From the IMG/VR virus record IMGVR_UViG_3300010885_002215, positions 1-41,813 of that record: a DNA stretch of 41,813 nucleotides. The stretch is one strand, 5' to 3'. Under the pieces are notes generated by a model. The model was not told where the DNA came from, searched no databases, and saw nothing but the letters and a program-made list of their open reading frames with translations. Of this stretch, positions 18,733 to 40,725 are shown one piece after another. Position numbers and translations under genes: made by a program. This stretch comes from a virus. Numbering within the stretch: position 1 is the stretch's first letter; every line of letters begins with the position of its first letter.

Positions 18733-19548
18733 ATGGCAATAGGAACAGCAACAGCAATAGCGATAGGTGGACTAGCATTAAGTGCGGGTAGCACTGCAGC
18801 ATCGTTTGCACAGGCAGGAAAACAAAAACAACTACAGAGACAGGCCCATTCAGATGCCGACAAGGCTATGCAGGAGGCAAGACATAAGTTAGAGGCAAAC
18901 TACTACGATCAGTTATCTATAAAGAAGGAACCGTACGAGTTGGAGCGTGAGGCTTTGGCATCACAAGGTGCTCAGGCTATTCAGGCGGGCGTTGAGAGTG
19001 AAAGGGGTGCGGCTGCCACGGCAGGACGTGTTCAGATGGGGATGAACGAGGCACAGGCGGGAATAAGGACAGCGCAAGGGAAGGAGATGTCTGACCTTGA
19101 GAAGTTAAGTGCAAACGAGCAGAGTAGACTACGTGACGTTAACGTTCAACTAGACTTAGGTCAGGTTGAGGGAGCACAACTTGCCGAGGCAAATGCACAA
19201 AAACTAGCTGCTGCTTCTACAACACAGGCTATGCAAGGTTTAACTAGTGTAGTACAGCAGGGTATTCAGTTAGGTGTTCCATTATATTTCCAACAAAAAG
19301 GACTAGACCCATTAACGGGTTTACCTTTAAAATCAGCACAAATGCAGTCAGCACAAGCTGCGGGGCAGTCAGTTTCACCTGTTTCATCTGAAAGTATTAG
19401 AGCGCAACCTAATACTCAAATAAATCCATTAAGTCCTTACTATCAGAATCCTTATATTATGGCAGGATTAGGTGCACCACTTAATTCATCTCAAGATTTT
19501 AGGACTAATCCTAACACACAAATTAACCCATTCCAACTAAATTGGTAA
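18733..19548 (+). CDS. Internal virion (ejection) protein, T7 gp14-like
   Basis: A 271-residue protein whose first 25 residues are an Ala/Gly/Ile-rich hydrophobic segment (IGTATAIAIGGLALSAGSTAAS) that could insert in a membrane. A long Gln/Ala/Glu-rich helix follows (about 28-165). It ends with a Pro/Asn/Gln-rich tail in which AQPNTQINPLSPYY is echoed by TNPNTQINPFQLNW. Podovirus inner-core proteins such as T7 gp14 have the same Ala-rich helical, membrane-active makeup and are encoded just before the larger core proteins, as here. It probably helps to form the DNA ejection channel across the host envelope. The function is inferred from composition and order. Confidence 0.62.
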   Translation: MAIGTATAIAIGGLALSAGSTAASFAQAGKQKQLQRQAHSDADKAMQEARHKLEANYYDQLSIKKEPYELEREALASQGAQAIQAGVESERGAAATAGRVQMGMNEAQAGIRTAQGKEMSDLEKLSANEQSRLRDVNVQLDLGQVEGAQLAEANAQKLAAASTTQAMQGLTSVVQQGIQLGVPLYFQQKGLDPLTGLPLKSAQMQSAQAAGQSVSPVSSESIRAQPNTQINPLSPYYQNPYIMAGLGAPLNSSQDFRTNPNTQINPFQLNW

Positions 19549-19549
19549 T

Positions 19550-21370
19550 ATGAGTACTTACTATAAATACGCAGAGCGGAATGTTGATAGCCAAGTAAAT
19601 TGGGGTGAGATTGGCAAGAACATGACCGACATGCTTGCGAGCGAGAATAAGATCAGGGAGGACAAAAAGGCCGCACTTGATGAAGCATCTCGTCAGTATG
19701 GATTAAATCTATCTGAACCACCGCAGGGGACAAACACGTCCCTTAATAGTTACGCATTAAAGTACGCAGACGACGCCCAAAGTGCTCGTCTACTACAGGA
19801 TAGGTTGTTAAGGGGTGGTATACTAAAGCCTAGGGACTACGTGCTGCAGAGGCAGAACCTTACCGACGGGACTAGTGGCCTATTCAATGTAATGAAGGAC
19901 TACCAAACCGAGTACGGTGTAAAGATGGAGCGTTATAAGACCGACAAGTCTCAGGATTTGGAACAGTGGCTAATGGCTCAGGCAGAAGGATTTGCTAACT
20001 TTAATAACTCTAAGCCTGTCATCAACCCAACAGACTACACGTTGAGTATAGCCAAGATGGTAAAGAATGAGAAGACGGGCGTGATGGAGATGGACAAAGA
20101 CCCCAACTCATTCACGACAGTTGCGGGTCTACAGAACAGGATTAAGGCCACGTTTGATAAGTTTGACGTACCGCAAACACTTAATGGATTTGTAAAGACA
20201 ATAGGTAAGCAATTGGATGCGGTAAAACTTGTTGGAAGTGAGACTAGGACGGGAAGCATAACCGAGACACTTGATATATCAAAAAGGAAGGGATTTGGAA
20301 AGTATGCGGGAGTTTTAGATAACTTTGAGAAGGCAGAGACTGCGGCACTAAAGTCATACCTTACCAACCCGTATAACACGTCTTCTGTACTTACAAATAG
20401 TTTAGGATTGGCACCAAACGGTGAACGCTACACGTTCTCATACAAACCCGAGGATATTAAGCCGGGTGGTAACATTATTTTGTTAAAGGACGACGGCAAG
20501 ACGGGAACTCCAATGCCAAACTTTACACCCGAGCAGGAGACTGCTGCGCTAGAACACTTGCGTACGCAGGCTAGGCTAATGTACGACAAGACTACAAACA
20601 TACAGGCGGTAACCGAGCCTAGGAAACGTGAGCCAAACGAGTGGGAATACAATGCTGCTCAGAAAGCTAAGGAAAACTTAACTGCCGCAGGAGCATGGAA
20701 TCAGGTCTACACAGGCAAGACCCCTGCTGAAAAACAATCGGCTTTAAATATATTGCTAGGAACTCCACACGCACGTGCGTTAGGATTGCAGGCAATAGAT
20801 TTAGATAAAAATGGAGTATTAAATCTTAAATATGAAGACCCTAGTAAGAATCGTACAATAAAATACCTTGACGAAAACGGTAAGCCTATTAGTGGGTCAG
20901 ATTGGGCGGCTATAGGAACAGAACTTACAGGAGAGGCTGATAGGAATAAGGCAATTAGAGCAGGTGGTGGTTTAGCGGGTGGATACGGTGGAAATGTTTC
21001 TGAATTAATTTCAGCAAAAAGGACAGGCCCAACCGTTGAGACTCCTGCAAATGAGAAGTATAAGCAGATTGTAACAGGGACACCTGTTAGTACAAAGGGT
21101 AAAGAAGATACTGTAATACCTGACCTGCAGGCTAAGTTTGGTGATTTTGGGTTTACATTTGAACCTTCGGGTTATTGGGGTACAAATAATGTAAAAATTA
21201 CATCACCTGATAAGTTGACTTCAATTGTAGTAGGACTTAATAATAAAAATGAACAAGACGAATTAGATGCAAATCAAAAAATAAAACAGTTCTTATCTAC
21301 AAACATGACCGAGGCTAAATTAAAAGAAATACCTGCGTCTACTTTAGGCGGAAGTATGAGTAAGTACTAA
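19550..21370 (+). CDS. Probable internal virion / cargo protein
   Basis: A 606-residue protein beginning MSTYYKYAERNVDSQVNWGE with a helical N-terminal domain that includes GKNMTDMLASENKIREDKKAALDE and ALKYADDAQSARLLQDRLL. The centre (about 150-300) is rich in Lys, Asp and Thr. The last 150 residues become Gly- and Thr-rich (IRAGGGLAGGYGGNVSEL). No signal peptide, membrane helix or catalytic motif is apparent. It sits between the gp14-like protein and the giant polyvalent protein, two bases after the first and 21 before the second, where T7-like phages encode inner-core protein gp15. I do not recognise the family itself. Confidence 0.55.
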   Translation: MSTYYKYAERNVDSQVNWGEIGKNMTDMLASENKIREDKKAALDEASRQYGLNLSEPPQGTNTSLNSYALKYADDAQSARLLQDRLLRGGILKPRDYVLQRQNLTDGTSGLFNVMKDYQTEYGVKMERYKTDKSQDLEQWLMAQAEGFANFNNSKPVINPTDYTLSIAKMVKNEKTGVMEMDKDPNSFTTVAGLQNRIKATFDKFDVPQTLNGFVKTIGKQLDAVKLVGSETRTGSITETLDISKRKGFGKYAGVLDNFEKAETAALKSYLTNPYNTSSVLTNSLGLAPNGERYTFSYKPEDIKPGGNIILLKDDGKTGTPMPNFTPEQETAALEHLRTQARLMYDKTTNIQAVTEPRKREPNEWEYNAAQKAKENLTAAGAWNQVYTGKTPAEKQSALNILLGTPHARALGLQAIDLDKNGVLNLKYEDPSKNRTIKYLDENGKPISGSDWAAIGTELTGEADRNKAIRAGGGLAGGYGGNVSELISAKRTGPTVETPANEKYKQIVTGTPVSTKGKEDTVIPDLQAKFGDFGFTFEPSGYWGTNNVKITSPDKLTSIVVGLNNKNEQDELDANQKIKQFLSTNMTEAKLKEIPASTLGGSMSKY

Positions 21371-21391: not shown

Positions 21392-24300
21392 ATGAATGAA
21401 GAAGCAATAAAGGACGCATATAACTTATTTGTTCAAAATGGATACAAGAAAAGTATCGACGAGTTTAAGACCTTAATGTCTTCAACACCCGAGGCATTAA
21501 ACGACTCGTATAATATATTCGTAAAAAACGGGTATAATAAAAGCATTGACGACTACAAGACGCTAATTGGTGTAAGTGGAGGTCAACGGGCACAACCTGT
21601 GCAGCCTACACAACAGGCGCAGGATATGCAGCAAGAGCAGCCTGTAGATGAAGGGCATGCACAGCCACCATTAAAAAAAAAAGAACAACCAAGTTTTTCG
21701 GCATTGCCATTGGCAGATGGTTCGTCGGCGTTACCTACTACCCAAGGAACTCCTAGTCCATTACCTCAACCAACCGCACAGCCTGCAACACAGCCTGCTG
21801 TTAATACTGCAGTGCAACCAACCGCACAGCCAACAGGACAGGTTCCTACTAAACCTGTAGATAATAAAGAAAAGTATTTTACCAATTGGGCAGGCGTGTT
21901 GACGCCTGATACTGTGCCAAACAGGGTAGAGAATGCTGTACAGGAGTACACAACCGTTCCGTTAACTAAGTGGTTCCTTGAGTCTGCAGATAATATAGTT
22001 AACGCATCTAAGAACATACTGACAGGGACAGGTTTTTTTGGGGAGGACATACCCGACACTGAAACCCCTATAACAGACGCACTGAAACAGCAACAGCAAA
22101 AAAAACAAGTTGATAAAAATGGTAACATTATAACAACTGCATTTGGTATGTTAGGAAAAACAGGTGACGTTGTTGCATCCATTATTATAAACTCCGTGCT
22201 ACCTCAAGACACGAAGAACAAGTTAATAAGTAACCTAAACAATGCATCTGCAGCCAATAAGGAGTACCTTAAGTCAATGCAAGAGGCTGAGGGTAAGAAC
22301 CAAGACACAAACATTGCGTCTAGGGCAATAAAGGGCATTGTTGGCATGGCGCCTGACTTACTACTAGCCGCAGAACTTGGGCCACAGGCGGCAGAGGCTA
22401 AACTAGCTAAGTACGGTGAGACTATAACAAAGAATGCCGCACCTTTATTAAAAAAACTTGTACCGAATGCGTTGGGATTAATAGAAAGAGGCGCACAGTC
22501 AGGATTTACAAAACTGATGGCTATAGAGGGCGCAGTTAAAGGGGTTGCTGAAACTAAAAAAGACGAGAATTATTTTTGGAATGGTATAAAGGGGTCTGCA
22601 GAGGGTGCACTAGAGGGCATGTACATGCACGGACTTGGTGAGGCTGCAGGCGCTGCCGCTACTCCTATAGCAAAGTTGGTGTCAAAGACCGGGGTTAACA
22701 GCGCAATAGCAACGGCTATAGCCACCCCTCTTGCAAATGCGGGAGTTTTTGCGACAGCAAAGGCGTTAAGGATGGGTATTACAGAACAGAAACTTGTGTC
22801 AGGAGAAGACCTTGCGATGGAGGCCGCAACAGGTGTTGGATTCAGTCTTTTGCATCTTGGCAGTCAGTACAAGAACCATAAAGAACTTAACCACTACTAC
22901 GACAATGTACTTAAGGACGACGCCGCAGATTCATTCACTAGGGTTATAAATGAGACAAAGGCTAATTTAGATGTGGCATACACTCCCGACCTTACACCGG
23001 AGCGTGTTAAGGAACTACAGACCGCAAGGGATGAGATAAAGGACGCAATATTAAAGGAACCCGACCTAAAAAATAAGACCATACTAGGCAACGAGGCTAT
23101 AAAAATTCAGAACCAATTAGATGCACACGCTTCTATAAAAGGAATAGTAGAGAATAAGGACTTCCTTGTAAACGAGATAGCACAGAATGAAAAATTAGAT
23201 CAAAAACAGAAGGACTTCTACACAAAGAAGATAACTGCAATTGCAGACGCATACGACACGTCTCCTCTTGGTATACAGAAGAGGGAGTTTAACAATAAGA
23301 TAGGAGAGGCTCAGTCTGAGTTGGATAAGGCCGCTCAGGTTTTCTCAAGCGCAACAAAGCCATCAGATAGGATAGCCGCCAAGATTGAGTTAGATAAAAG
23401 GCAACAGGAGTTGGACGACTACAACGCACAACTAACCGAACTAATAGCATCCAAGCCTGAGAAGGCAGAGGTTAAGCCTACGGAGGCTCCTGAGAAGACG
23501 GCTGAAAGGATTGCAAGGATTGCAGATATTGAGGCGACATTGTCCCAACCCGATAATGGAAAGGGAACCGTAACTGTTGACGATAAATTAATCGAAAGAT
23601 CAGACCTAGAAACAGAATTAAAAACTTTAAAAACTGAACAAGATGCCATTCAAAAACAAAGCACAAATGAAGGCGTGCTACGCACAGAACAACCCGAATT
23701 GGGACTGCAAGAAGTGGGCCAAGGAAACGCCCAACCTGAAAGAGTTACCACAGGGGCCGAAGAAGCCATCGCTGCTGCGCAACCGCAAGAAGTAGTTAAT
23801 CCATTAGAAACAGTTGAATCTACAACTACGGCTTTAGGAAATTTAGATATGCCTTGGTTTGATGATTTTCAAAACAAATTTGGAGAAGAATATAAAACAG
23901 CCAAAGAAGTTGCAGAGGCATACCAAAAAGCAAAAGCAGATAACAGCAATCCTGAACTAGTAAAAGCTGTTGAATCGTTACTAGTAAATGCTGCTCCTGT
24001 AGTTGAGGCTGCACCTACAGTTGAGGCAGAGCAGTACGTACCAATGCCTACCACAGACCTATCTCATGATGCGTTCACTAGGGACAATGCCATTGACTTT
24101 GAGGAGGATGAGAAGGAGGGAAATAACGGAAGGACGTACTCGTACATCTCGTCATTAACTGTAGAGGCTAGGAACGCTGACGGCGAATCAATCGGTACAA
24201 TTACCAAGAAGGCTGACGAGGATGGAAACCTTAGTTTTGAGGTAGAAAATACAGACGGCAAGCAGTTGCATAAGGAGGGAGGGTTTGAGACGCTTAAGGA

Positions 24301-27300
24301 CGCAAAGAAGGCGCTAGTAGACGACGTAAATAAGACACAAAAGAAGGCGTTTGATAAGGAGGCTAAGGCGCAGGCAAAGATAGCAGAGAAGGCGGCCAAG
24401 AGAGCGGCAGATAAGGATGCAAAGAAGGAGGCGAAGGCGAAAGGGGTTGTGTCTTCAACGACACCAACTGAGGGTACTGTTCAAGAGGTTGCTCCAACTG
24501 AAAGATCAGCATTTAATGAAGGTGTTGCTGAGGTTCAAAAAAACGCAGAGGAGTATAAGAAAGCAAATAAAATCAATAGAAGGTCTAGCTTATCTGTTCC
24601 TAAACTATTTGAGAAGGTATCAAAAATGATGTCTAAGGCTTATGAATTGGTTAAAAATGAACCTAATCAAGCTGCAGTAAAAAGGGCATACGATGCCATG
24701 ATGAGTGAGACAATGACTCAATATGATTTCATTGTAGGAAAGGGGTTAAATGTAATTAAGCATACAGGTACAGGAGAGCCATACGCAAACTCTAAGGATA
24801 TGTTAAAAGATTTAAGGGAAAATAATACCCTTAAGTTTCTTCCTAACGAGGTAGCTTTTGGAAATGAACCTACATCTGCTGCTGATAATATTGGTTTACA
24901 ACCTAGTGGTAGAAAATTACCTGATGGGTACGAACTTACCAACTCTGAGGTATTTAGGATAGTACACGATTACTTTGGCCATGGTATACTTGGAAACCAA
25001 TTTGGCCCAATAGGAGAAGAAAATGCAACACTACAACATCTTGATTTATATTCAAGTGAAGCAGCACCTGCAGTAATATTCCAAACTAGAGGGCAGAACT
25101 CTTGGGTTAATTTTAGTGGAGAGAATACTCGTGCTGCTGAATTAAGAAAAGAAGCAAAGGAGTTAATAAAACAAGGAAAGAATGTAGAGGCAAAGAAATT
25201 ATTGGCAGAGGCAGATAAAATCTTTAAGTTTGCAGAGCCTAAAATAGGAATATTCCCTGACATTTTTAATTTTAAAAAATATGAAACAGCAAGAAGAATC
25301 AACGAGCAAGAAGCTGTTAACAGCAGAGCAGACAAAGGAACTAATGACCTATCCCGTTTATTGGGAAAGTACTCTAAGGAAAGCCGCAGAACGAGGGGAG
25401 TCAATAAGCAAAACGTACGAGGAACTAAAAGAATTGGAGGGGTTGATGTAAACGTAATTAATGAGTATACTTTTGATGATAAAATAAATAACGGAATACT
25501 TAGTGCATTTAAAAATTTTAAAGGAGTACAGAAAGTATACGAGATGACTGACGGAAAGGCTTACCGTGAGATGGTAATTAAGTCATTAAAGAATAATAGA
25601 TTTGCATCATCTGTTACTGTTCATACTGCAGAGGAATTTAATAAGATGAGGATGTTCGTAACAGAAGACGGCTCCACAGGTATTACTATAAATGAAGAAG
25701 GATTTTTAGGCGGGGCATTCTCTGACCCTAGCGCAAGTAGACCTCAAAACTTAGCACAACTAATGGTTTTAGGTATTAAAGAGGGGGCAACAACGTGCGA
25801 AGCGTTTGATACAGTTCTTCCTGATTACTATTCTCAATTTGGTTTTAAAGCTGTTTCAAGAACTGAATTTAATGATGAGTACAGGCCAATGGAAGCCAAT
25901 GGCAACTCAGTTATTGATTGGGATTACGAAACCTATAAAGCGTTTAATAACGGTAAGCCTGATGTAGTATTTTTTATATACGATGGAGGTAACCGTGATA
26001 CTATTGAAGATAGGATAGGATTATTTGATACATATAATAATTACGATAAGGCACAAACTGAATCATTTGATAAGGATGGGTATGAGCATGCAGAAGAGGT
26101 AATGAAACAGTCTGCTGTTAAGAGACTTGAGTTTGACTTAGGTATAGAAGAGGCTCCAAAAACTGAGGTAGAGCAGGAAGTTGCAGACCTAAACGATATG
26201 TTTGGAGAACAGGTTGGCACTACAACTTCCGGGACATCTGTTGCAGACAAGGCAGACATGGACGCAATGAAGGCTAGAACTACAGATGAAAAACAGTTAA
26301 AAATAATTGAGTCTGCAGAAAAACTTTCAAAGACGTTAGGGTCTGTACTTAGAAACTTTGGCATATTCGTACATGAAAGTAATGAAAGTTACAATGCAGC
26401 TATGGCTTCTGATGACGTTATGGGGGTTGGAGACACTGCGGGAAACTTCTCATACATTAAAAATGCTGACGGTACTTACTCGGGACGTGTAGATATTAAC
26501 CTATCTGCGGCTAACGAAAGGACAGTTGCGCATGAGGTTACACACGGTGTTATGCTTAAGGCGTTTGGAGAGAATCCTGCGCTATTTAAGACGTTCCGTG
26601 ACAGGATGTCTACCATACTTTCGGACAGCACTAACAAGGAACTTACAGACTTTGCAAACCAATACGTAGACAGCAAGACGGGTGAACTCAAGGACGTGGC
26701 TCATGAGGAGTATATGACCGAGTTGATTGCAGCGTTGGCTGAACAAGGAGGGAAGATACCCGTTGGTACCATGCAAAAAATTGCCGTACTTATTAATAAG
26801 GTGGTGTCTAAGATTACCAACGGTAAGTTCCAACCTTTTGAGGATATAAAGAACACGAAGAACTTGGTTGACTTTATAAACAGCGTGTCTAAGTCTTTAA
26901 ATAAAGGAGAGGTAATAAGTCCTTCTAATATAAATAAGATTGGACTTAGTGGTGTTATAGACACGTCTAATGCGGTAAAGTCAAAGAGTTCAATAGCTAT
27001 GGGTGAACTTAAAAGATTCCCCGTAAATGAAAACACTAAACTAGAGGAGGATGTTAAGTTATCTGACTTTGACGGAAAACATATAAGTTTGATAGAATCT
27101 GATAGGATGACAGGTGCGCACATATCAGACACTGAGGGTAACGTATTGTATAAATTTTATGGTGGTGTATATTATCCTATAATTACAGGAAAATGGTGGG
27201 CATCAAAAGAAATAAAAAAAGCAAAAGAAATTGCAGAAGTTGGAAATAATAATAGAGATAAAGATGGATATATATATACAGCACCTATGGTTGGTGGCGC

Positions 27301-30300
27301 TGATATGCATATGAGTAATGTAGACATGTTAAATTCAACAATTGAGTTGATGAAGTTTGACGCTAAAAATAAAAAATCAAGTGTAACCAAGGACGATATA
27401 ATTAAATATATAAAAAAAGCATTTGATAAAAAAAATCTAGCAGATAAGGCGTCAATACTAAGATCAGTATTAAGAAAATCAAATAATACAGATACATTAT
27501 TTGACGAGTTGAAGTATGTACTATTACAGGATGGTGAATATATAGTAGATAGAAATGGTAAACCATTCTTAGATGAAAATAAAAATAAAATATCCACATT
27601 TGCATTTGACGAAAGGAAAGAAATTGTAAAAGGCATATTAGGAGACCCGAAAGTTCAAGATAATAAGTTTCCGTCTGCAGGTTCTATTATTGATGTAGCA
27701 AAAAGATTTGAGGAGCCTATAACAAGTAAAGTAAAAAGAATGGGTGACTTGGTTACCGTTATGAGAACTAAAGGTAAGCTAGAAGCAAAAGTTTCTGATG
27801 TAAATGATGAATTTTACCATAAGTCGTACCCTGCAGAAATTCGTGCGGTAGATGAGAATGGAAATCCTGCAGAGATTGAGGTATTTATATTAGACGGTGC
27901 TTATAGCATGAGAGATGTTTTACCATCTTTAAAAACAAAAAAAGGAAAAGAATTTACTTGGGAACAATACCTTGAATATCATAAAGAAAAATATAATGAA
28001 AAACAGATAGAAAGTTGGTATAATAGAAATGCAAAACTAGGGGCCGCAACAGGCAAAGTTGTTTCAAAGTCTCAGAAGGTTAAGTTTACAGACATGCGTG
28101 GCAAAAAAGTAGACGTTGAACTAGACAACATAAAATTAAAGCCAAGGGATGAGATAAATTTAGATGAGGAAAATAAATGGAATCATTTTAATATAGAGTC
28201 TGACGGTGTTACGTTGGGGTACATACAGGTTATGAAGAAGGGAGAAGACGTAAAGATTGCCCTTTCTAGTATAATAGACCCTAAACTTAAGGCAGACAGT
28301 GCCACAGGAAAGACCAATTTTATTGGAAAAGTATTTGAATTACTAAAGGAAATATTTGTAAAGCCTTTCAAGGGTGACGTTATAATAGAGTCTAACAAGG
28401 GTAAGGGAATTGGTTCTGCTGCGTACGATGCGATGGCAAGGATATTAAAGAACGACTACGGCAAGAAACTTATATCCGACACGTCAAGGTCTGACAATGC
28501 TGAGAATTTATGGAAGTCTTTGGTAAAGAAAGGGAAGGCCGTAGTTGTTGGAGATGTAGACAGCAAAAATAGGTGGGAGCACTACTTTGAGTACGTTGTT
28601 CCGAAGGAAGAGGTTACGTCAAAATCTCAGCGTACCAAGGAAGATACCGTAAATAAGATAGTGAACCAAGCAAGGTCTCACGGATTCTCCGAGGAATCTA
28701 TCACCAAGTTCCTTACCGACAAGGGTTTCTCTGACGTTGAAATAAAGAACGCACTAGGAAACGCTGCGCCTACTGAGACACTTTCTGAGCAAAAACTTGC
28801 GGGATACGACGCAATGATGACAAAGGTTGACGCCATGGTTGCTAGGCAGAAAAGAAAAAATATTGACGAGGATAAGATGGCGCTGAACGTAGACAAGTTA
28901 ATTAGGGACACGGATGCGTATAAAAACGCAACAGATGCGCAGAAGAAACTGTTAGAACTAGAGGGCAGGAACAAGGTTGGCGTAAGGGAAAGAAGGGCGC
29001 CATCTATTGGTCGTATACTTGGCTCAATCAAGGATTTCACTAGCCTTACTAGGAACGATAAACTTAACATGATTAAGCAGATAAGAGACCTTTCAAAGGA
29101 TGCGGCTAAGAACTTGGCTCAGGAGATTAGGTTCATAGCAAGCACCGGGAAAATATCTCCAACTCAGGCGTCTAATATTGTCGCAAGGTTTGGCAAGGTT
29201 AACATGCTAAGCGAGTTATCTGTTTCAAACTTTGTGGACTACATGTCAAAGGTTTTAAACGATGCTCAGTATGCATCTAAACTAAATGAGGCCAAGGGCC
29301 TTAAGGGTACAATATCTCAACTGTCTAGGAACCAAGAGAAGAACGCAAACCTTAGAGAGTTGGCAAAGGAGTTCATAAACATCAACCCGTCGTTAGTTGA
29401 AAGTATTGACGACTACAACTCGATGGCTAATAAGATAAAGGAGGCAATTAAGGGGTCAACTGCCGTTGGTGGTAAGGTTAAGTTTGCTGAGACAGTTAAT
29501 ATAGAGGATGCCGTGGCCTATACAAAGGAGGCGATGAAGAATCAGGAGGAGGTTATGCACGAGCAGAAGGCTGCCGAGGTTCAGAACCTTATGGGCATAG
29601 ATTCGTCAGAGTTCTCGTACGATGAGTTGGTGGACATGCTTAAGAAGGACAAGCCAATTAGCAAGTATAACGAGTCTATAATCAAGGACACGGTAGATAA
29701 AATGTTTGGTACCTACTCTGCGGTTATAAAGGACATAATTAAAACGGGAGTTGACCCGTTCACGGGAGAGGACGTGTCGTACACAGATAGAGAAAAGGAA
29801 ATCATAACCAAGTTCATGGGAATGGATACCAAGGAGATGACCACAAAAAATTCGTTAGAGGCAATAGACGCCATAGCAAACTTTTTGGAGAACAAGTCCA
29901 CCGCAAAGATGGATGCGATCACTTCTAGGTACATAGGGGAGAGGAACAGTAAAATAATTTTAAAAAAAGGCATTATGGCGGTTCCTCTTAAGAAGCTATT
30001 CTCAAAGTCATTGGGTAGGGTTCTTACGGAAGGTACGACCAACCTTAGTATGGTATTTGAGAAGATGTTCAAGGGATTCCATCGTGGTGGCGAGGTTGAG
30101 AAGGCTATGGGCGTTACAACACTTATAAACAAGAAGGCGTTTGCTCAGTCTACAGCCGATGGTATAACCAACGACTACATCAAGAAGTTCTACGACAAGA
30201 GCGTTAAACCAAATGGAGAGGCTTTTAATAGCGCAGAGAATAATATTGAGCGTGGAATGGCTGCGTTCATGATGAGGACTGTTATTGGAACAGAGAAGAA

Positions 30301-32488
30301 GATGGCTGCAGAGTTTAGTAGAAGGAAGGGACTAATCGAACAGACCATTGACGTACTATCAAATGGTAACGAGAAGGAGAAAGAGAAGGCGGCAATCTAT
30401 AGGGAGGTATACGAAAAGTTACTAAAAGACTCTGAGACTATAAAGGACGTTAAAGACAAGACAGATAAAATAAATTTAGATGCGGTTGACTATTGGCATA
30501 AGCAGTGGGATAGCAAGTACGATAGGTTATCTGACGTAGCAACAAATGTTTACAATAAGGTGCTAACCAAAGACCTCAACTACTCACCTGACAGGTATTC
30601 TAAGATGGGAAGCTATTCAGAGAACGTAGACCTAGCAAACGATCAGTCTGCGTTTATAAACAATACCAACGGGGTATTATATAATAAAAAGTCGGGCGTG
30701 TTAGAAGACGTTACGCATACGGCATCTCTTCCAAAGGATGACTTTGGTAAGGTGATGTCATTCATTGACCTGTCTTTTGATAAAAACAACTCAAACTCAA
30801 TGTATGATGCATTGGTTGATATTGAAACTGCTGCACCAATTAGGCAGGTTCAGGCGTTCATGGAGTCTAAAAACTTTGAGAAGATTATACCAACTGCAGA
30901 GGATGCGCAGCTATTAAAGAATAGAATTAATCTATATGTTCAGAATATCAGGAAGAAAAGTCCTTACACAAATGATGAGTACTCGAAGGCTATAAGGAGA
31001 ATAAATAAGATAGCTGCAGTTGGAGTAGGTCAGGCATTGGGTGGTATTACACAGCCATTCAAGCAGGTTATACCCGTGGCAATAAATACCGTTGTAAACG
31101 GTGGAGGCATATCATTGGGTGCAGCATTCGACGGAAACTTTAACAATTGGTTGAACAAGTCAGGTTACGCAATTGCGAACAGGGGTATTGAATCTCAGGC
31201 AGAGATTCAGTCTATAAATAAAATGATCGAAGAGGCGTCTAAGTCAAACGTATCTAAGGCGATAAAGATTATAGAGGAGGCCAATAAGAAGTGGATAGAC
31301 CTGTTCCTAGTTAAGCCGGACGTATTGGTGGCTAGGGCCTCGTTTAAGACGTTCTACGAGCAGTCTTTAAAGAAGCAGCGTATTGACGTGAACGGATTAG
31401 ACTACTCTACACACAAGGTAAACGAGGAGGCTGCTGATTACGCACAGAAGATGGTAGACAGACAGCAGAATATATCAGACCATGACTTGGGTGGCAAGTT
31501 ATTTACAAGCAAGGAGCCTTCAACTCAGGTTCTGATGAAGATATTTATGCCGTTTGCTAGTTTCAGGATGAACCAATCAACTAGGTTGGCGTCAGACATG
31601 TCTGTTCTAGGACATTGGAAAATCTCTACACCCGAGGATAAGATGATTGCAGCTAGGTCGTTGGCAGGATTTGCTGCAGAGATGGCCACATTTAAGGTGA
31701 TGTCAACCTTAGTTTCTGTTTTAATAGGAAACATAGCCGCATCTATCATGGGCAAGGATGAGAACGACGAGGAGAAGAAGAAGAGAATAGATGGGGTTAT
31801 GAAGGGACAGGCTACGGGTGCTGTTACAGACATATTCTCACCGCTACCTATACTTGATAAGTTCGTGCAGACAGGAGTTGCATCTATATCAGATGCTGTT
31901 CAGCAGTCTCTTGACATATCTGAGGAGGACAGGATGAATATTTACGGCACTAGGAAGGAAGACTTCGTTAAAAACTTTGGCATGTATGGAATCGCACCTG
32001 ACAGGGCCATTCAGTTCTATGAACTAGTTAAGTTGGCTCAGACGGGAACCTATAAGGATGACTTTGGTAAGGAGAAGCAGATATCTAGCGACAGTCAGGA
32101 TGCGCTCAAGAAACTAGTTGGCCCTGCGCTTTTAACAAACATTGGAATGGCGCCATCTGAACTTGCGTCTGTTATAAGGAACGCTGTTAGTATGGCTAAG
32201 AAGAAAACTTCGGGCGAGAAGAGTGCAGAGAAGGCACAGACTGCTGCTGCGTCTGCAGCACGTTCGGGAAGGAATTTATTGGAAGGATACGACAGTAGGG
32301 AGTCAATGAGAAGATACAACCCAAGACTGTACGAACAAACTTTTGGTAAAAAATCAGATTGGTATAAGGAACACAAGTCAGAGATGGAACAAAAGAAAAA
32401 AGAAAGGCAGGCAGAAAGGAAGGCTCAGGATATTAAAGAAAACTATCACCCTAATACAAAAACAAAAACTGAGTACAGTAACTATTAA
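21392..32488 (+). CDS. Giant polyvalent internal virion protein, 3698 aa
   Basis: One 3698-residue frame. In order: two 30-residue repeats with AYNLFVQNGYKKSIDEF (8-28, 38-58); a Gln/Pro/Thr-rich linker (about 65-150); Ala-rich hydrophobic helices (315-465); coiled coils; a domain with His1192-Asp-x-x-Gly-His1197 followed by EENATLQHLDL; a GNAT-like domain (about 1360-1550); a zincin with HEVTH (1714-1718) and downstream Glu1772/1777; a domain with GGADMHMSN and YHKSYPAEIRA (1873-2235); a second GNAT domain with NKGKGIGSAAY from 2335; long helices; and one membrane segment (3431-3454). Polyvalent proteins of this kind are injected with phage DNA and act on host targets. Position after two ejection proteins supports that. 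No RNA polymerase motif was found. Its stop codon overlaps the stop of the opposing gene. Confidence 0.85.
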   Translation: MNEEAIKDAYNLFVQNGYKKSIDEFKTLMSSTPEALNDSYNIFVKNGYNKSIDDYKTLIGVSGGQRAQPVQPTQQAQDMQQEQPVDEGHAQPPLKKKEQPSFSALPLADGSSALPTTQGTPSPLPQPTAQPATQPAVNTAVQPTAQPTGQVPTKPVDNKEKYFTNWAGVLTPDTVPNRVENAVQEYTTVPLTKWFLESADNIVNASKNILTGTGFFGEDIPDTETPITDALKQQQQKKQVDKNGNIITTAFGMLGKTGDVVASIIINSVLPQDTKNKLISNLNNASAANKEYLKSMQEAEGKNQDTNIASRAIKGIVGMAPDLLLAAELGPQAAEAKLAKYGETITKNAAPLLKKLVPNALGLIERGAQSGFTKLMAIEGAVKGVAETKKDENYFWNGIKGSAEGALEGMYMHGLGEAAGAAATPIAKLVSKTGVNSAIATAIATPLANAGVFATAKALRMGITEQKLVSGEDLAMEAATGVGFSLLHLGSQYKNHKELNHYYDNVLKDDAADSFTRVINETKANLDVAYTPDLTPERVKELQTARDEIKDAILKEPDLKNKTILGNEAIKIQNQLDAHASIKGIVENKDFLVNEIAQNEKLDQKQKDFYTKKITAIADAYDTSPLGIQKREFNNKIGEAQSELDKAAQVFSSATKPSDRIAAKIELDKRQQELDDYNAQLTELIASKPEKAEVKPTEAPEKTAERIARIADIEATLSQPDNGKGTVTVDDKLIERSDLETELKTLKTEQDAIQKQSTNEGVLRTEQPELGLQEVGQGNAQPERVTTGAEEAIAAAQPQEVVNPLETVESTTTALGNLDMPWFDDFQNKFGEEYKTAKEVAEAYQKAKADNSNPELVKAVESLLVNAAPVVEAAPTVEAEQYVPMPTTDLSHDAFTRDNAIDFEEDEKEGNNGRTYSYISSLTVEARNADGESIGTITKKADEDGNLSFEVENTDGKQLHKEGGFETLKDAKKALVDDVNKTQKKAFDKEAKAQAKIAEKAAKRAADKDAKKEAKAKGVVSSTTPTEGTVQEVAPTERSAFNEGVAEVQKNAEEYKKANKINRRSSLSVPKLFEKVSKMMSKAYELVKNEPNQAAVKRAYDAMMSETMTQYDFIVGKGLNVIKHTGTGEPYANSKDMLKDLRENNTLKFLPNEVAFGNEPTSAADNIGLQPSGRKLPDGYELTNSEVFRIVHDYFGHGILGNQFGPIGEENATLQHLDLYSSEAAPAVIFQTRGQNSWVNFSGENTRAAELRKEAKELIKQGKNVEAKKLLAEADKIFKFAEPKIGIFPDIFNFKKYETARRINEQEAVNSRADKGTNDLSRLLGKYSKESRRTRGVNKQNVRGTKRIGGVDVNVINEYTFDDKINNGILSAFKNFKGVQKVYEMTDGKAYREMVIKSLKNNRFASSVTVHTAEEFNKMRMFVTEDGSTGITINEEGFLGGAFSDPSASRPQNLAQLMVLGIKEGATTCEAFDTVLPDYYSQFGFKAVSRTEFNDEYRPMEANGNSVIDWDYETYKAFNNGKPDVVFFIYDGGNRDTIEDRIGLFDTYNNYDKAQTESFDKDGYEHAEEVMKQSAVKRLEFDLGIEEAPKTEVEQEVADLNDMFGEQVGTTTSGTSVADKADMDAMKARTTDEKQLKIIESAEKLSKTLGSVLRNFGIFVHESNESYNAAMASDDVMGVGDTAGNFSYIKNADGTYSGRVDINLSAANERTVAHEVTHGVMLKAFGENPALFKTFRDRMSTILSDSTNKELTDFANQYVDSKTGELKDVAHEEYMTELIAALAEQGGKIPVGTMQKIAVLINKVVSKITNGKFQPFEDIKNTKNLVDFINSVSKSLNKGEVISPSNINKIGLSGVIDTSNAVKSKSSIAMGELKRFPVNENTKLEEDVKLSDFDGKHISLIESDRMTGAHISDTEGNVLYKFYGGVYYPIITGKWWASKEIKKAKEIAEVGNNNRDKDGYIYTAPMVGGADMHMSNVDMLNSTIELMKFDAKNKKSSVTKDDIIKYIKKAFDKKNLADKASILRSVLRKSNNTDTLFDELKYVLLQDGEYIVDRNGKPFLDENKNKISTFAFDERKEIVKGILGDPKVQDNKFPSAGSIIDVAKRFEEPITSKVKRMGDLVTVMRTKGKLEAKVSDVNDEFYHKSYPAEIRAVDENGNPAEIEVFILDGAYSMRDVLPSLKTKKGKEFTWEQYLEYHKEKYNEKQIESWYNRNAKLGAATGKVVSKSQKVKFTDMRGKKVDVELDNIKLKPRDEINLDEENKWNHFNIESDGVTLGYIQVMKKGEDVKIALSSIIDPKLKADSATGKTNFIGKVFELLKEIFVKPFKGDVIIESNKGKGIGSAAYDAMARILKNDYGKKLISDTSRSDNAENLWKSLVKKGKAVVVGDVDSKNRWEHYFEYVVPKEEVTSKSQRTKEDTVNKIVNQARSHGFSEESITKFLTDKGFSDVEIKNALGNAAPTETLSEQKLAGYDAMMTKVDAMVARQKRKNIDEDKMALNVDKLIRDTDAYKNATDAQKKLLELEGRNKVGVRERRAPSIGRILGSIKDFTSLTRNDKLNMIKQIRDLSKDAAKNLAQEIRFIASTGKISPTQASNIVARFGKVNMLSELSVSNFVDYMSKVLNDAQYASKLNEAKGLKGTISQLSRNQEKNANLRELAKEFININPSLVESIDDYNSMANKIKEAIKGSTAVGGKVKFAETVNIEDAVAYTKEAMKNQEEVMHEQKAAEVQNLMGIDSSEFSYDELVDMLKKDKPISKYNESIIKDTVDKMFGTYSAVIKDIIKTGVDPFTGEDVSYTDREKEIITKFMGMDTKEMTTKNSLEAIDAIANFLENKSTAKMDAITSRYIGERNSKIILKKGIMAVPLKKLFSKSLGRVLTEGTTNLSMVFEKMFKGFHRGGEVEKAMGVTTLINKKAFAQSTADGITNDYIKKFYDKSVKPNGEAFNSAENNIERGMAAFMMRTVIGTEKKMAAEFSRRKGLIEQTIDVLSNGNEKEKEKAAIYREVYEKLLKDSETIKDVKDKTDKINLDAVDYWHKQWDSKYDRLSDVATNVYNKVLTKDLNYSPDRYSKMGSYSENVDLANDQSAFINNTNGVLYNKKSGVLEDVTHTASLPKDDFGKVMSFIDLSFDKNNSNSMYDALVDIETAAPIRQVQAFMESKNFEKIIPTAEDAQLLKNRINLYVQNIRKKSPYTNDEYSKAIRRINKIAAVGVGQALGGITQPFKQVIPVAINTVVNGGGISLGAAFDGNFNNWLNKSGYAIANRGIESQAEIQSINKMIEEASKSNVSKAIKIIEEANKKWIDLFLVKPDVLVARASFKTFYEQSLKKQRIDVNGLDYSTHKVNEEAADYAQKMVDRQQNISDHDLGGKLFTSKEPSTQVLMKIFMPFASFRMNQSTRLASDMSVLGHWKISTPEDKMIAARSLAGFAAEMATFKVMSTLVSVLIGNIAASIMGKDENDEEKKKRIDGVMKGQATGAVTDIFSPLPILDKFVQTGVASISDAVQQSLDISEEDRMNIYGTRKEDFVKNFGMYGIAPDRAIQFYELVKLAQTGTYKDDFGKEKQISSDSQDALKKLVGPALLTNIGMAPSELASVIRNAVSMAKKKTSGEKSAEKAQTAAASAARSGRNLLEGYDSRESMRRYNPRLYEQTFGKKSDWYKEHKSEMEQKKKERQAERKAQDIKENYHPNTKTKTEYSNY

Positions 32489-40628: not shown

Positions 40629-40640
40629 TTTCTTTTTAGT

Positions 40641-40725
40641 ACGGAGTGTAGGGGTCGAACCTACACGATGACTATCCCCTCCTCCAAGATTTTATAGTCA
40701 TGCCTTACCCTTCAGCCAACTCCGT
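40641..40725 (-). tRNA. tRNA with extended, non-canonical anticodon arm
   Basis: The 85-base element has a perfect seven-pair acceptor (ACGGAGT/ACTCCGT), TG at 8-9, a D-arm GCT...GGC with GGGTA in its loop, and a standard T-arm (GTAGG-TTCGACC-CCTAC). The stretch between D- and T-stem is 37 bases. The best stem there is an eight-pair perfect match (ATGACTAT/ATAGTCAT) placed exactly where the anticodon stem should be, but with an 18-base loop, so the anticodon is unclear. A class II fold with a weaker stem and an eight-base CTATAAAA loop is the alternative; it would resemble Tyr or Leu tRNAs. No CCA is encoded. It is co-directional with neighbours and three bases from the next tRNA. Confidence 0.68.

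What the first reader, a model, noticed from the sequence alone, without database searches (positions are those of the whole stretch)
21392..32488. 3698-residue polyvalent protein with several effector-like domains
One gene fills 26% of the window. It joins N-terminal 30-residue repeats, a low-complexity linker, an HDxxGH domain, two GNAT-like regions, a zincin metallopeptidase motif, long helices and a membrane segment. It follows two probable ejection proteins. Polyvalent proteins are thought to be injected to counter host defences; a podovirus inner-core protein of this size with so many putative activities is worth dissecting.
Basis: partly seen in the sequence, partly recalled or inferred. 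Interest (0 to 1): 0.72.

Follow-up and report, generated by a model that had tools for sequence, protein, structure and literature searches.

The report
Giant phage protein with swappable cassettes
A flavobacterial-type phage carries one 3,698-residue protein, probably packed in its particle and injected into the host, whose two ends are kept among relatives while the enzyme-like cassettes between them are swapped, and one of those cassettes is a widespread unnamed domain whose stand-alone bacterial cousins sit in S-adenosylmethionine-cycle operons.

Summary
In detail: 21392-32488 (+) is one 3698-aa ORF, last in the virion-gene block of a fragment related to Elemovirus/Pervagoviridae/Pachyviridae podoviruses. 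The interpretation (injected polyvalent protein) is largely supported by context, but packaging and activity are untested here. In the MS/MS-annotated relative phi40:1 the gene in the same position is a virion protein; its sequence is not directly alignable to this one.

New here: (1) most relatives readable past this point have a giant gene (2.2-3.9 kaa). Its N-tag and a C-terminal part of about 1.3 kaa (SD 32 aa) are conserved; the region between (1.1-1.8 kaa in 20 relatives, 2.45 kaa here) is a mosaic of cassettes that are inserted, replaced and reordered. Two phages 96% identical in DNA differ by 1.8 kb of unrelated cassette DNA around a shared 138-bp linker island. (2) The HDxxGH domain (1039-1292) is confidently modelled (pLDDT 92.6), without Pfam model or Foldseek PDB match. 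Stand-alone bacterial homologues lie in operons with SAH-hydrolase-like, homocysteine-methyltransferase or DUF3293 genes; DUF3293 is itself a cassette in sibling phage proteins. (3) The zincin HExxH is kept in 90/90 homologues. GNAT-like 1 has modest support, GNAT-like 2 weak.

Verdict: new variant of a known kind (polyvalent proteins).

The parts
21392..32488 (+). whole gene, 3698-aa polyvalent-type protein
   Evidence: same position in relatives
21392..21574 (+). N-tag, residues 1-61, two ~30-aa repeats; the only long stretch besides M1 shared with the nearest named relative
   Evidence: 41 of 57 proteins; stand-alone 'structural protein' form gp128 in Cellulophaga phi19:3 and N-terminus of a 'DarB-like antirestriction' protein in Bacteroides phage BKO1-TP3
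21659..21883 (+). P/Q-rich low-complexity linker, residues 90-164
21884..23626 (+). hypervariable region, residues 165-745; no homologue among the relatives held
23627..23779 (+). M1, residues 746-796: conserved 50-aa disordered-looking linker at a junction between cassettes
   Evidence: 36 of 57 proteins; DNA island of 127-138 bp between swapped blocks in L062/L063 and L051/L054
23900..24367 (+). M2 cassette, residues 837-992, lies before HD here but after HD in L012, L039, L041
24506..25267 (+). HD domain (HDxxGH), residues 1039-1292; invariant in 96 of 96: Q1110 Y1131 R1189 H1192 D1193 H1197 F1204 G1208 E1209 H1216 Q1235
   Evidence: phrog_3170; model pLDDT 92.6; no PDB match found by Foldseek
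25469..26137 (+). GNAT-like domain 1, residues 1360-1582
   Evidence: phrog_2563
26294..26920 (+). zincin metallopeptidase-like domain, residues 1635-1843; H1714 E1715 H1718, candidate third ligand E1773 or E1777
   Evidence: HExxH in 90 of 90 homologues
26939..27991 (+). X domain, residues 1850-2200, follows the zincin in several relatives including elemoC gp20; unassigned
28169..28687 (+). GNAT-like region 2, residues about 2260-2432 (KGKGIG...); weak
   Evidence: sequence; partial matches in L361 and others; no Pfam or PDB hit
28754..29398 (+). C-terminal chassis, H1 helical domain, residues 2455-2669
   Evidence: 30 proteins
29405..31168 (+). C-terminal chassis, H2, residues 2672-3259
   Evidence: remote match in elemoC and ctfjg026 by profile comparison
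31271..32452 (+). C-terminal chassis, CT, residues 3294-3687, with the weak hydrophobic segment 3434-3454
   Evidence: 24 proteins
19550..21370 (+). upstream probable ejection protein, used as anchor to find relatives
18733..19548 (+). upstream virion structural protein, probable ejection protein
   Evidence: phrog_13764

Best explanation
This is the last protein of the virion block of a Bacteroidota podovirus: a polyvalent protein packed in the particle and delivered into the host with the DNA. The N-terminal 61-residue tag (possibly a packaging signal) and the ~1250-residue, mostly helical C-terminal chassis are the fixed virion/ejection parts. Between them lies a cargo bay of exchangeable enzyme-like cassettes, probably recombining at conserved linkers such as M1. 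Here the bay holds the largest load of the set compared: M2, HD, a GNAT-like domain, a zincin with its X domain, and a second GNAT-like region. The zincin probably processes the protein itself (before or after injection) or a host protein; the GNAT-like domains may acylate host proteins; the HD domain probably acts in the S-adenosylmethionine/homocysteine cycle, plausibly to lower or redirect SAM early in infection. Shown: gene, position, domain boundaries, conservation, cassette exchange, gene context of HD homologues. Inferred: packaging of this protein, injection, all activities, and the roles of tag, chassis and M1.
For: Most relatives whose contig runs on past the anchor gene show a giant ORF there; complete single ORFs have 2172-3097 aa in the viral contigs, up to 3859 aa in named genomes. 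Identity to ctfjg026 falls from 79% (terminase) and 77% (portal) to 31% (upstream gene), and only ~120 of 3698 residues of this protein align. In 20 complete relatives the chassis is 1311 +/- 32 aa while the part before it is 1496 +/- 213 aa (1080-1809); here 1246 and 2452. Clean cassette events: L039 = L038 plus an HD cassette in a co-linear ~80% background; in L041 HD stands in place of another block; L062/L063 96% identical DNA on both sides of ~1.8 kb of unrelated DNA with only M1 shared. Cassettes in siblings include ART-PolyVal, LPD23, GNAT, DUF3293. HExxH 90/90. HD invariants 96/96 at 11 positions. Stand-alone HD genes: AdoHcyase_NAD-like gene + HD + DUF3293 in 9 loci of 8 genomes, HD + homocysteine S-methyltransferase (+ methyltransferase, AdoHcyase) in 3, AdoHcyase nearby in 3 more. 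DUF3293 also sits in elemoC gp20, L049 and L050, and L049 holds both DUF3293 and HD.
Against: phi40:1 gp101 does not align directly with this protein; the link is position plus a chain through elemoC gp20. No Pfam model reaches its cut-off on this protein itself. The chassis model is low confidence (pLDDT 54.5), so its ejection role has no structural support. N-tag homology to the stand-alone structural protein is modest (E 5e-4). HD activity is inferred from neighbours only; the neighbours fit a methylation pathway as well as SAM depletion.
Confidence: 0.62

Rival explanations
1. It is mainly a structural or ejection-conduit protein: the helical chassis and tag build the inner core or trans-envelope channel, and the middle domains are assembly tools (zincin as maturation protease) rather than effectors acting on the host.
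For: Position after two probable ejection proteins, helical C-terminal third, zincin could do autoprocessing as proposed for P1 DdrB, chassis is the most constant part.
Against: Structural parts would not be expected to swap enzyme-like domains between near-identical phages; HD, GNAT-like and DUF3293 have stand-alone cellular or plasmid homologues; ART-PolyVal in siblings.
Confidence: 0.22
2. It is made inside the cell and is not packaged; the location next to virion genes only reflects co-transcription.
For: No proteomics for this phage; in the Cellulophaga phi19:3 group the giant gene is left as 'hypothetical protein' while its neighbours are called structural by similarity to phi8:3.
Against: phi40:1 gp101 is annotated from virion MS/MS; the N-tag occurs as a separate structural protein in phi19:3; phrog_22602, which holds the phi19:3 giant protein, is annotated virion structural protein.
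Confidence: 0.1
3. The HD domain is a metal-dependent enzyme related in mechanism to the 2-His-1-Glu hydroxylases (its HDxFGH helix resembles that of aromatic amino acid hydroxylases) and meets SAM-cycle metabolites only indirectly.
For: Spacing H-D-x-x-G-H and an invariant E and H on following helices; the resemblance to hydroxylases is recalled from memory, a lead only.
Against: No hydroxylase among sequence-profile hits to PDB; Foldseek and VIA gave no convincing match, which does not exclude it.
Confidence: 0.15

Closest known systems
Polyvalent proteins (Iyer et al. 2017, PMC5512222)
   Same: many unrelated domains in one giant polypeptide, zincin and GNAT-like domains, encoded among late virion genes; siblings carry ART-PolyVal and LPD23
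   Different: a fixed N-tag and constant-length C-terminal chassis framing a swap region with a conserved linker island was not described in the parts of that paper read here; no LPD or PolyVal model of Pfam matched the HD domain
N4/DEV virion RNA polymerase (about 3.4-3.5 kaa, ejected)
   Same: giant single virion cargo protein of a podovirus; a zincin is reported in N4 vRNAP
   Different: no RNA polymerase recognised in this protein
crAss001 cargo proteins (gp45-gp50, PMC10172136)
   Same: large proteins stored in a Bacteroidota podovirus virion and thought to be ejected partly unfolded
   Different: those are partly RNA-polymerase associated and broadly conserved; here the cargo is mosaic. 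No sequence relation was tested
Phage P1 DarB/DdrB antirestriction proteins
   Same: virion-packaged, DdrB with a likely processing zincin; the N-tag of this family also starts a 'DarB-like antirestriction' protein in BKO1-TP3
   Different: no DarB helicase/methylase domain found here
Phage SAM-degrading enzymes (T3 SAMase, Svi3-3 SAM lyase; PMC7877911, PMC8406200)
   Same: proposed effect on the SAM pool against restriction
   Different: HD is mostly helical and matches no SAM lyase model; DUF3293 shows only a sub-threshold match to that family in one member (E 0.0066)

Membership tests
Polyvalent proteins | several domains of unrelated type in one polypeptide | tested here: met
   zincin, HD, GNAT-like 1 and X in one ORF, each with its own homologues elsewhere
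Polyvalent proteins | encoded near phage late/virion genes | tested here: met
Polyvalent proteins | contains curated polyvalent-associated domains | tested here: inconclusive
   none reaches cut-off on this protein; ART-PolyVal and LPD23 occur in sibling proteins
Polyvalent proteins | packaged and transferred to the host | not testable with these tools
   indirect only: MS/MS note on phi40:1 gp101
Zincin metallopeptidase (MPTase of polyvalent proteins) | HExxH plus downstream glutamate ligand | tested here: met
   90/90 HExxH, E..EL in 72/90 by a simple pattern; E1772, E1773, E1777 invariant in alignment A6
Zincin metallopeptidase (MPTase of polyvalent proteins) | zincin fold | not tested
GNAT acetyltransferase (region 1) | match to GNAT models | tested here: inconclusive
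   Acetyltransf_10 in 4 of 34 homologues, best E 0.0043, none in this member
N4-like virion RNA polymerase | RNA polymerase domain | tested here: inconclusive
   no RNAP family hit in Pfam, PHROGs or NCBIfam
Phage SAM lyase | match to S-AdoMet_lyase model | tested here: not met
   neither this protein nor the window's HD domain matches
Aromatic amino acid hydroxylase (for HD) | same fold | tested here: inconclusive
   one hydroxylase chain at chance level in Foldseek, none in VIA

The most novel reading that the evidence does not exclude
HD (with its operon partner DUF3293, found as a cassette in sibling phages) is an uncharacterised metal-dependent enzyme family of the SAM/homocysteine cycle that phages inject at the start of infection, as part of an exchangeable cassette system, to disarm SAM-dependent defences such as restriction-modification and BREX.
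Probability: 0.22. Interest if true: 0.87.

Novelty: new variant of a known kind. Interest (0 to 1): 0.62.

Why it matters
It turns a vague class (huge phage proteins of unknown use) into something testable. A constant tag and chassis around a cargo bay suggests how such phages can change injected effectors quickly, much as polymorphic toxins do, and natural pairs that differ by one cassette are ready-made experiments. The HD domain is found in at least 574 viral contig stretches and in bacterial chromosomes from several phyla, has no Pfam name and no PDB match found here, and has a clear metabolic gene context, so one enzyme assay could name a family that recurs across phage virion proteins.

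Tried and rejected
Search of viral contigs with the six-member alignment of the upstream protein: too diverse for patterns, replaced by a two-member alignment. Joint alignment of HD, GNAT 1 and zincin fragments (A8): misaligned, discarded. Chassis model: pLDDT 54.5, not used for fold search. PDB sequence profiles for HD, zincin, GNAT 1, X, chassis, DUF3293: no meaningful hits. Foldseek/VIA of HD against PDB: best Foldseek E 1.4; VIA best IrrE Z 2.5, rmsd 5.2, 95 aligned, too weak to use; families not listed are not excluded. DUF3293 as SAM lyase: one sub-threshold Pfam hit only, no SAM lyase in the PDB profile search. NCBIfam hits to a glutathione transferase and a methanogenesis marker on this protein are far below cut-offs and taken as chance. 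Homology of the variable region 165-745 to other members: none found.

Full report
OBSERVATION. The ORF 21392-32488 (+) is real: 3698 codons, ATG start, no stop. The record is a 41,813-base virus fragment. Portal and terminase are 77-79% identical to 'Podoviridae sp. ctfjg026' (60.85 kb, Manatee Spring) and 35-50% to Elemovirus, Maribacter phage Panino and Cellulophaga phi40:1. The host is inferred to be a Bacteroidota, probably flavobacterial; not tested.

POSITION. In all these phages the virion block runs in the same order and ends with a large gene: 3859 aa (ctfjg026), 3694 (elemoC gp20), 1829 (Panino), 1691 (phi40:1 gp101), and 1871 in phi19:3. In phi40:1, gp101 and several genes before it are annotated from MS/MS of virions. 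This is the only direct evidence for packaging, and it is by position: phi40:1 gp101 does not align with our protein, although it aligns with part of elemoC gp20 (E 3e-7 to 2e-9), which aligns with ours over 1604-2165.

FIXED ENDS, SWAPPED MIDDLE. Using the upstream ejection protein as anchor, 80 contigs were fetched. Most of those that continue past it have a giant ORF next, complete or running off the contig; in three (L055, L058, L059) it is split. Iterated HMMs from our protein gave domain maps for 57 proteins: N-tag in 41, M1 linker in 36, H1 in 30, CT in 24, while HD, zincin and M2 occur in 15 each and GNAT-like 1 in 3 (counts include our own protein). Some profile comparisons include our own sequence in the target profile and so overstate significance; they are used only as support. 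In 20 complete relatives the C-terminal part measures 1311 +/- 32 aa and the part before it 1496 +/- 213 aa; ours are 1246 and 2452, so this protein carries the largest load in that set (the giant proteins of ctfjg026 and elemoC, which are as long, were not in it).

Order varies: M2-HD here, HD-M2 in L012, L039, L041; HD-GNAT-zincin here, zincin-HD-GNAT in L003. Natural pairs show clean events. L038 and L039 are co-linear at 78-81% except for a block of about 270 aa in L039 that is the HD cassette; in L041 HD occupies the place of another block. L062 and L063 are 96% identical in DNA over 11.9 kb before and 7.4 kb after a region of about 1.8 kb that is unrelated except for 138 bp at 93% identity, which is M1; L051/L054 show the same with 127 bp. 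Reading M1 as a recombination handle is inference; the island is observed.

CARGO. Sibling cassettes match ART-PolyVal, LPD23, DUF3293, DUF7178 and GNAT models, which places the family among polyvalent proteins although no Pfam model reaches its cut-off on our member. Zincin: HExxH in 90 of 90 homologues (the search that fetched many of them used a pattern across this motif, so the count is not fully independent), with invariant glutamates downstream. X (1850-2200) follows the zincin in elemoC, L021, L283 and others, is well conserved (invariant D, GG, WA, HxSY) and unassigned. GNAT-like 1 has homologues in many viral contigs and Rhodococcus plasmids and weak Pfam GNAT support. GNAT-like 2 rests on a motif.

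HD DOMAIN. Eleven residues are invariant in 96 of 96 homologues: Q1110, Y1131, R1189, H1192, D1193, H1197, F1204, G1208, E1209, H1216, Q1235 (patterns used to find homologues covered part of this region). Foldseek found no PDB chain below E 1.4; against predicted viral proteins it finds phage proteins, some annotated with polyvalent or head-morphogenesis domains.

GENE CONTEXT OF HD. Of the genome loci, 53 have HD in an ORF under 700 aa; 25 of these have a SAM-cycle-type neighbour within about 4 kb. Strongest: gene A (AdoHcyase_NAD above cut-off) - HD - DUF3293 in Aquimarina (three), Ulvibacter, Aureispira, Enterovibrio, Pelagibius (different order) and a BD1-7 clade bacterium (HD and DUF3293 in one ORF), 9 loci in 8 genomes; HD - homocysteine S-methyltransferase - methyltransferase - AdoHcyase, nearly abutting, in L217 and L193, with L192 alike; AdoHcyase nearby in three actinobacteria. 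The remaining homocysteine-methyltransferase hits in actinobacteria mostly lie 2.5-3 kb away and count for less. No random-locus control was run; my rough estimate for an average genome is about 1-2% by chance. The loci are not independent, since related genomes and near-identical Microbacterium-type contigs are among them. DUF3293 is also a cassette in elemoC gp20 and in L049/L050, and L049 has both. Two members of one bacterial operon type thus recur as cargo of the same phage protein family. This supports a role in SAM/homocysteine metabolism; SAM depletion against restriction is one reading, modelled on T3 SAMase and Svi3-3 (PMC7877911, PMC8406200), and not shown.

MECHANISM. Most likely the protein is packed through its tag and chassis, ejected partly unfolded as proposed for crAss001 cargo (PMC10172136), refolds in the cell, is perhaps cut by its zincin, and its cassettes act on host targets. 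Every step after 'encoded in the virion block' is inference.

NOVELTY. The kind is known (PMC5512222). New are the fixed-ends architecture with measured cassette exchange, and the HD/DUF3293 link to the SAM cycle; a word search of that paper found no mention of homocysteine, and no paper in the library mentions DUF3293. Absence from this library is not proof of novelty.

Noticed in passing
L058:11876-19454, L059:11876-18587, L055:11723-19124: the giant gene is split into two overlapping ORFs in different frames; L058 and L059 are separate assemblies, so a natural split or frameshifting is possible
   Followed up: no
L203-L209, L214, L222: near-identical HD-containing contigs are filed under Microbacterium, Proteobacteria, Croceicoccus, Acidobacteria and Verrucomicrobia genomes: a mobile element or contaminating contigs
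   Followed up: no
L377:5630-17815 (Bacteroides phage BKO1-TP3 gp55): a 5.5-kaa 'DarB-like antirestriction' protein begins with the same kind of N-tag repeat
   Followed up: partly
window 40639-40725 (-): ARAGORN calls a tRNA with a four-base anticodon; probably spurious
   Followed up: no
window 19550-21370, residues about 500-590 of its protein: the end of the upstream protein resembles residues 160-245 of the giant protein of ctfjg026 (30%, E 6e-7), as if segments move between the two neighbouring genes
   Followed up: no
window 26939-27991: X domain with invariant HxSY motif after the zincin, conserved and unassigned
   Followed up: partly
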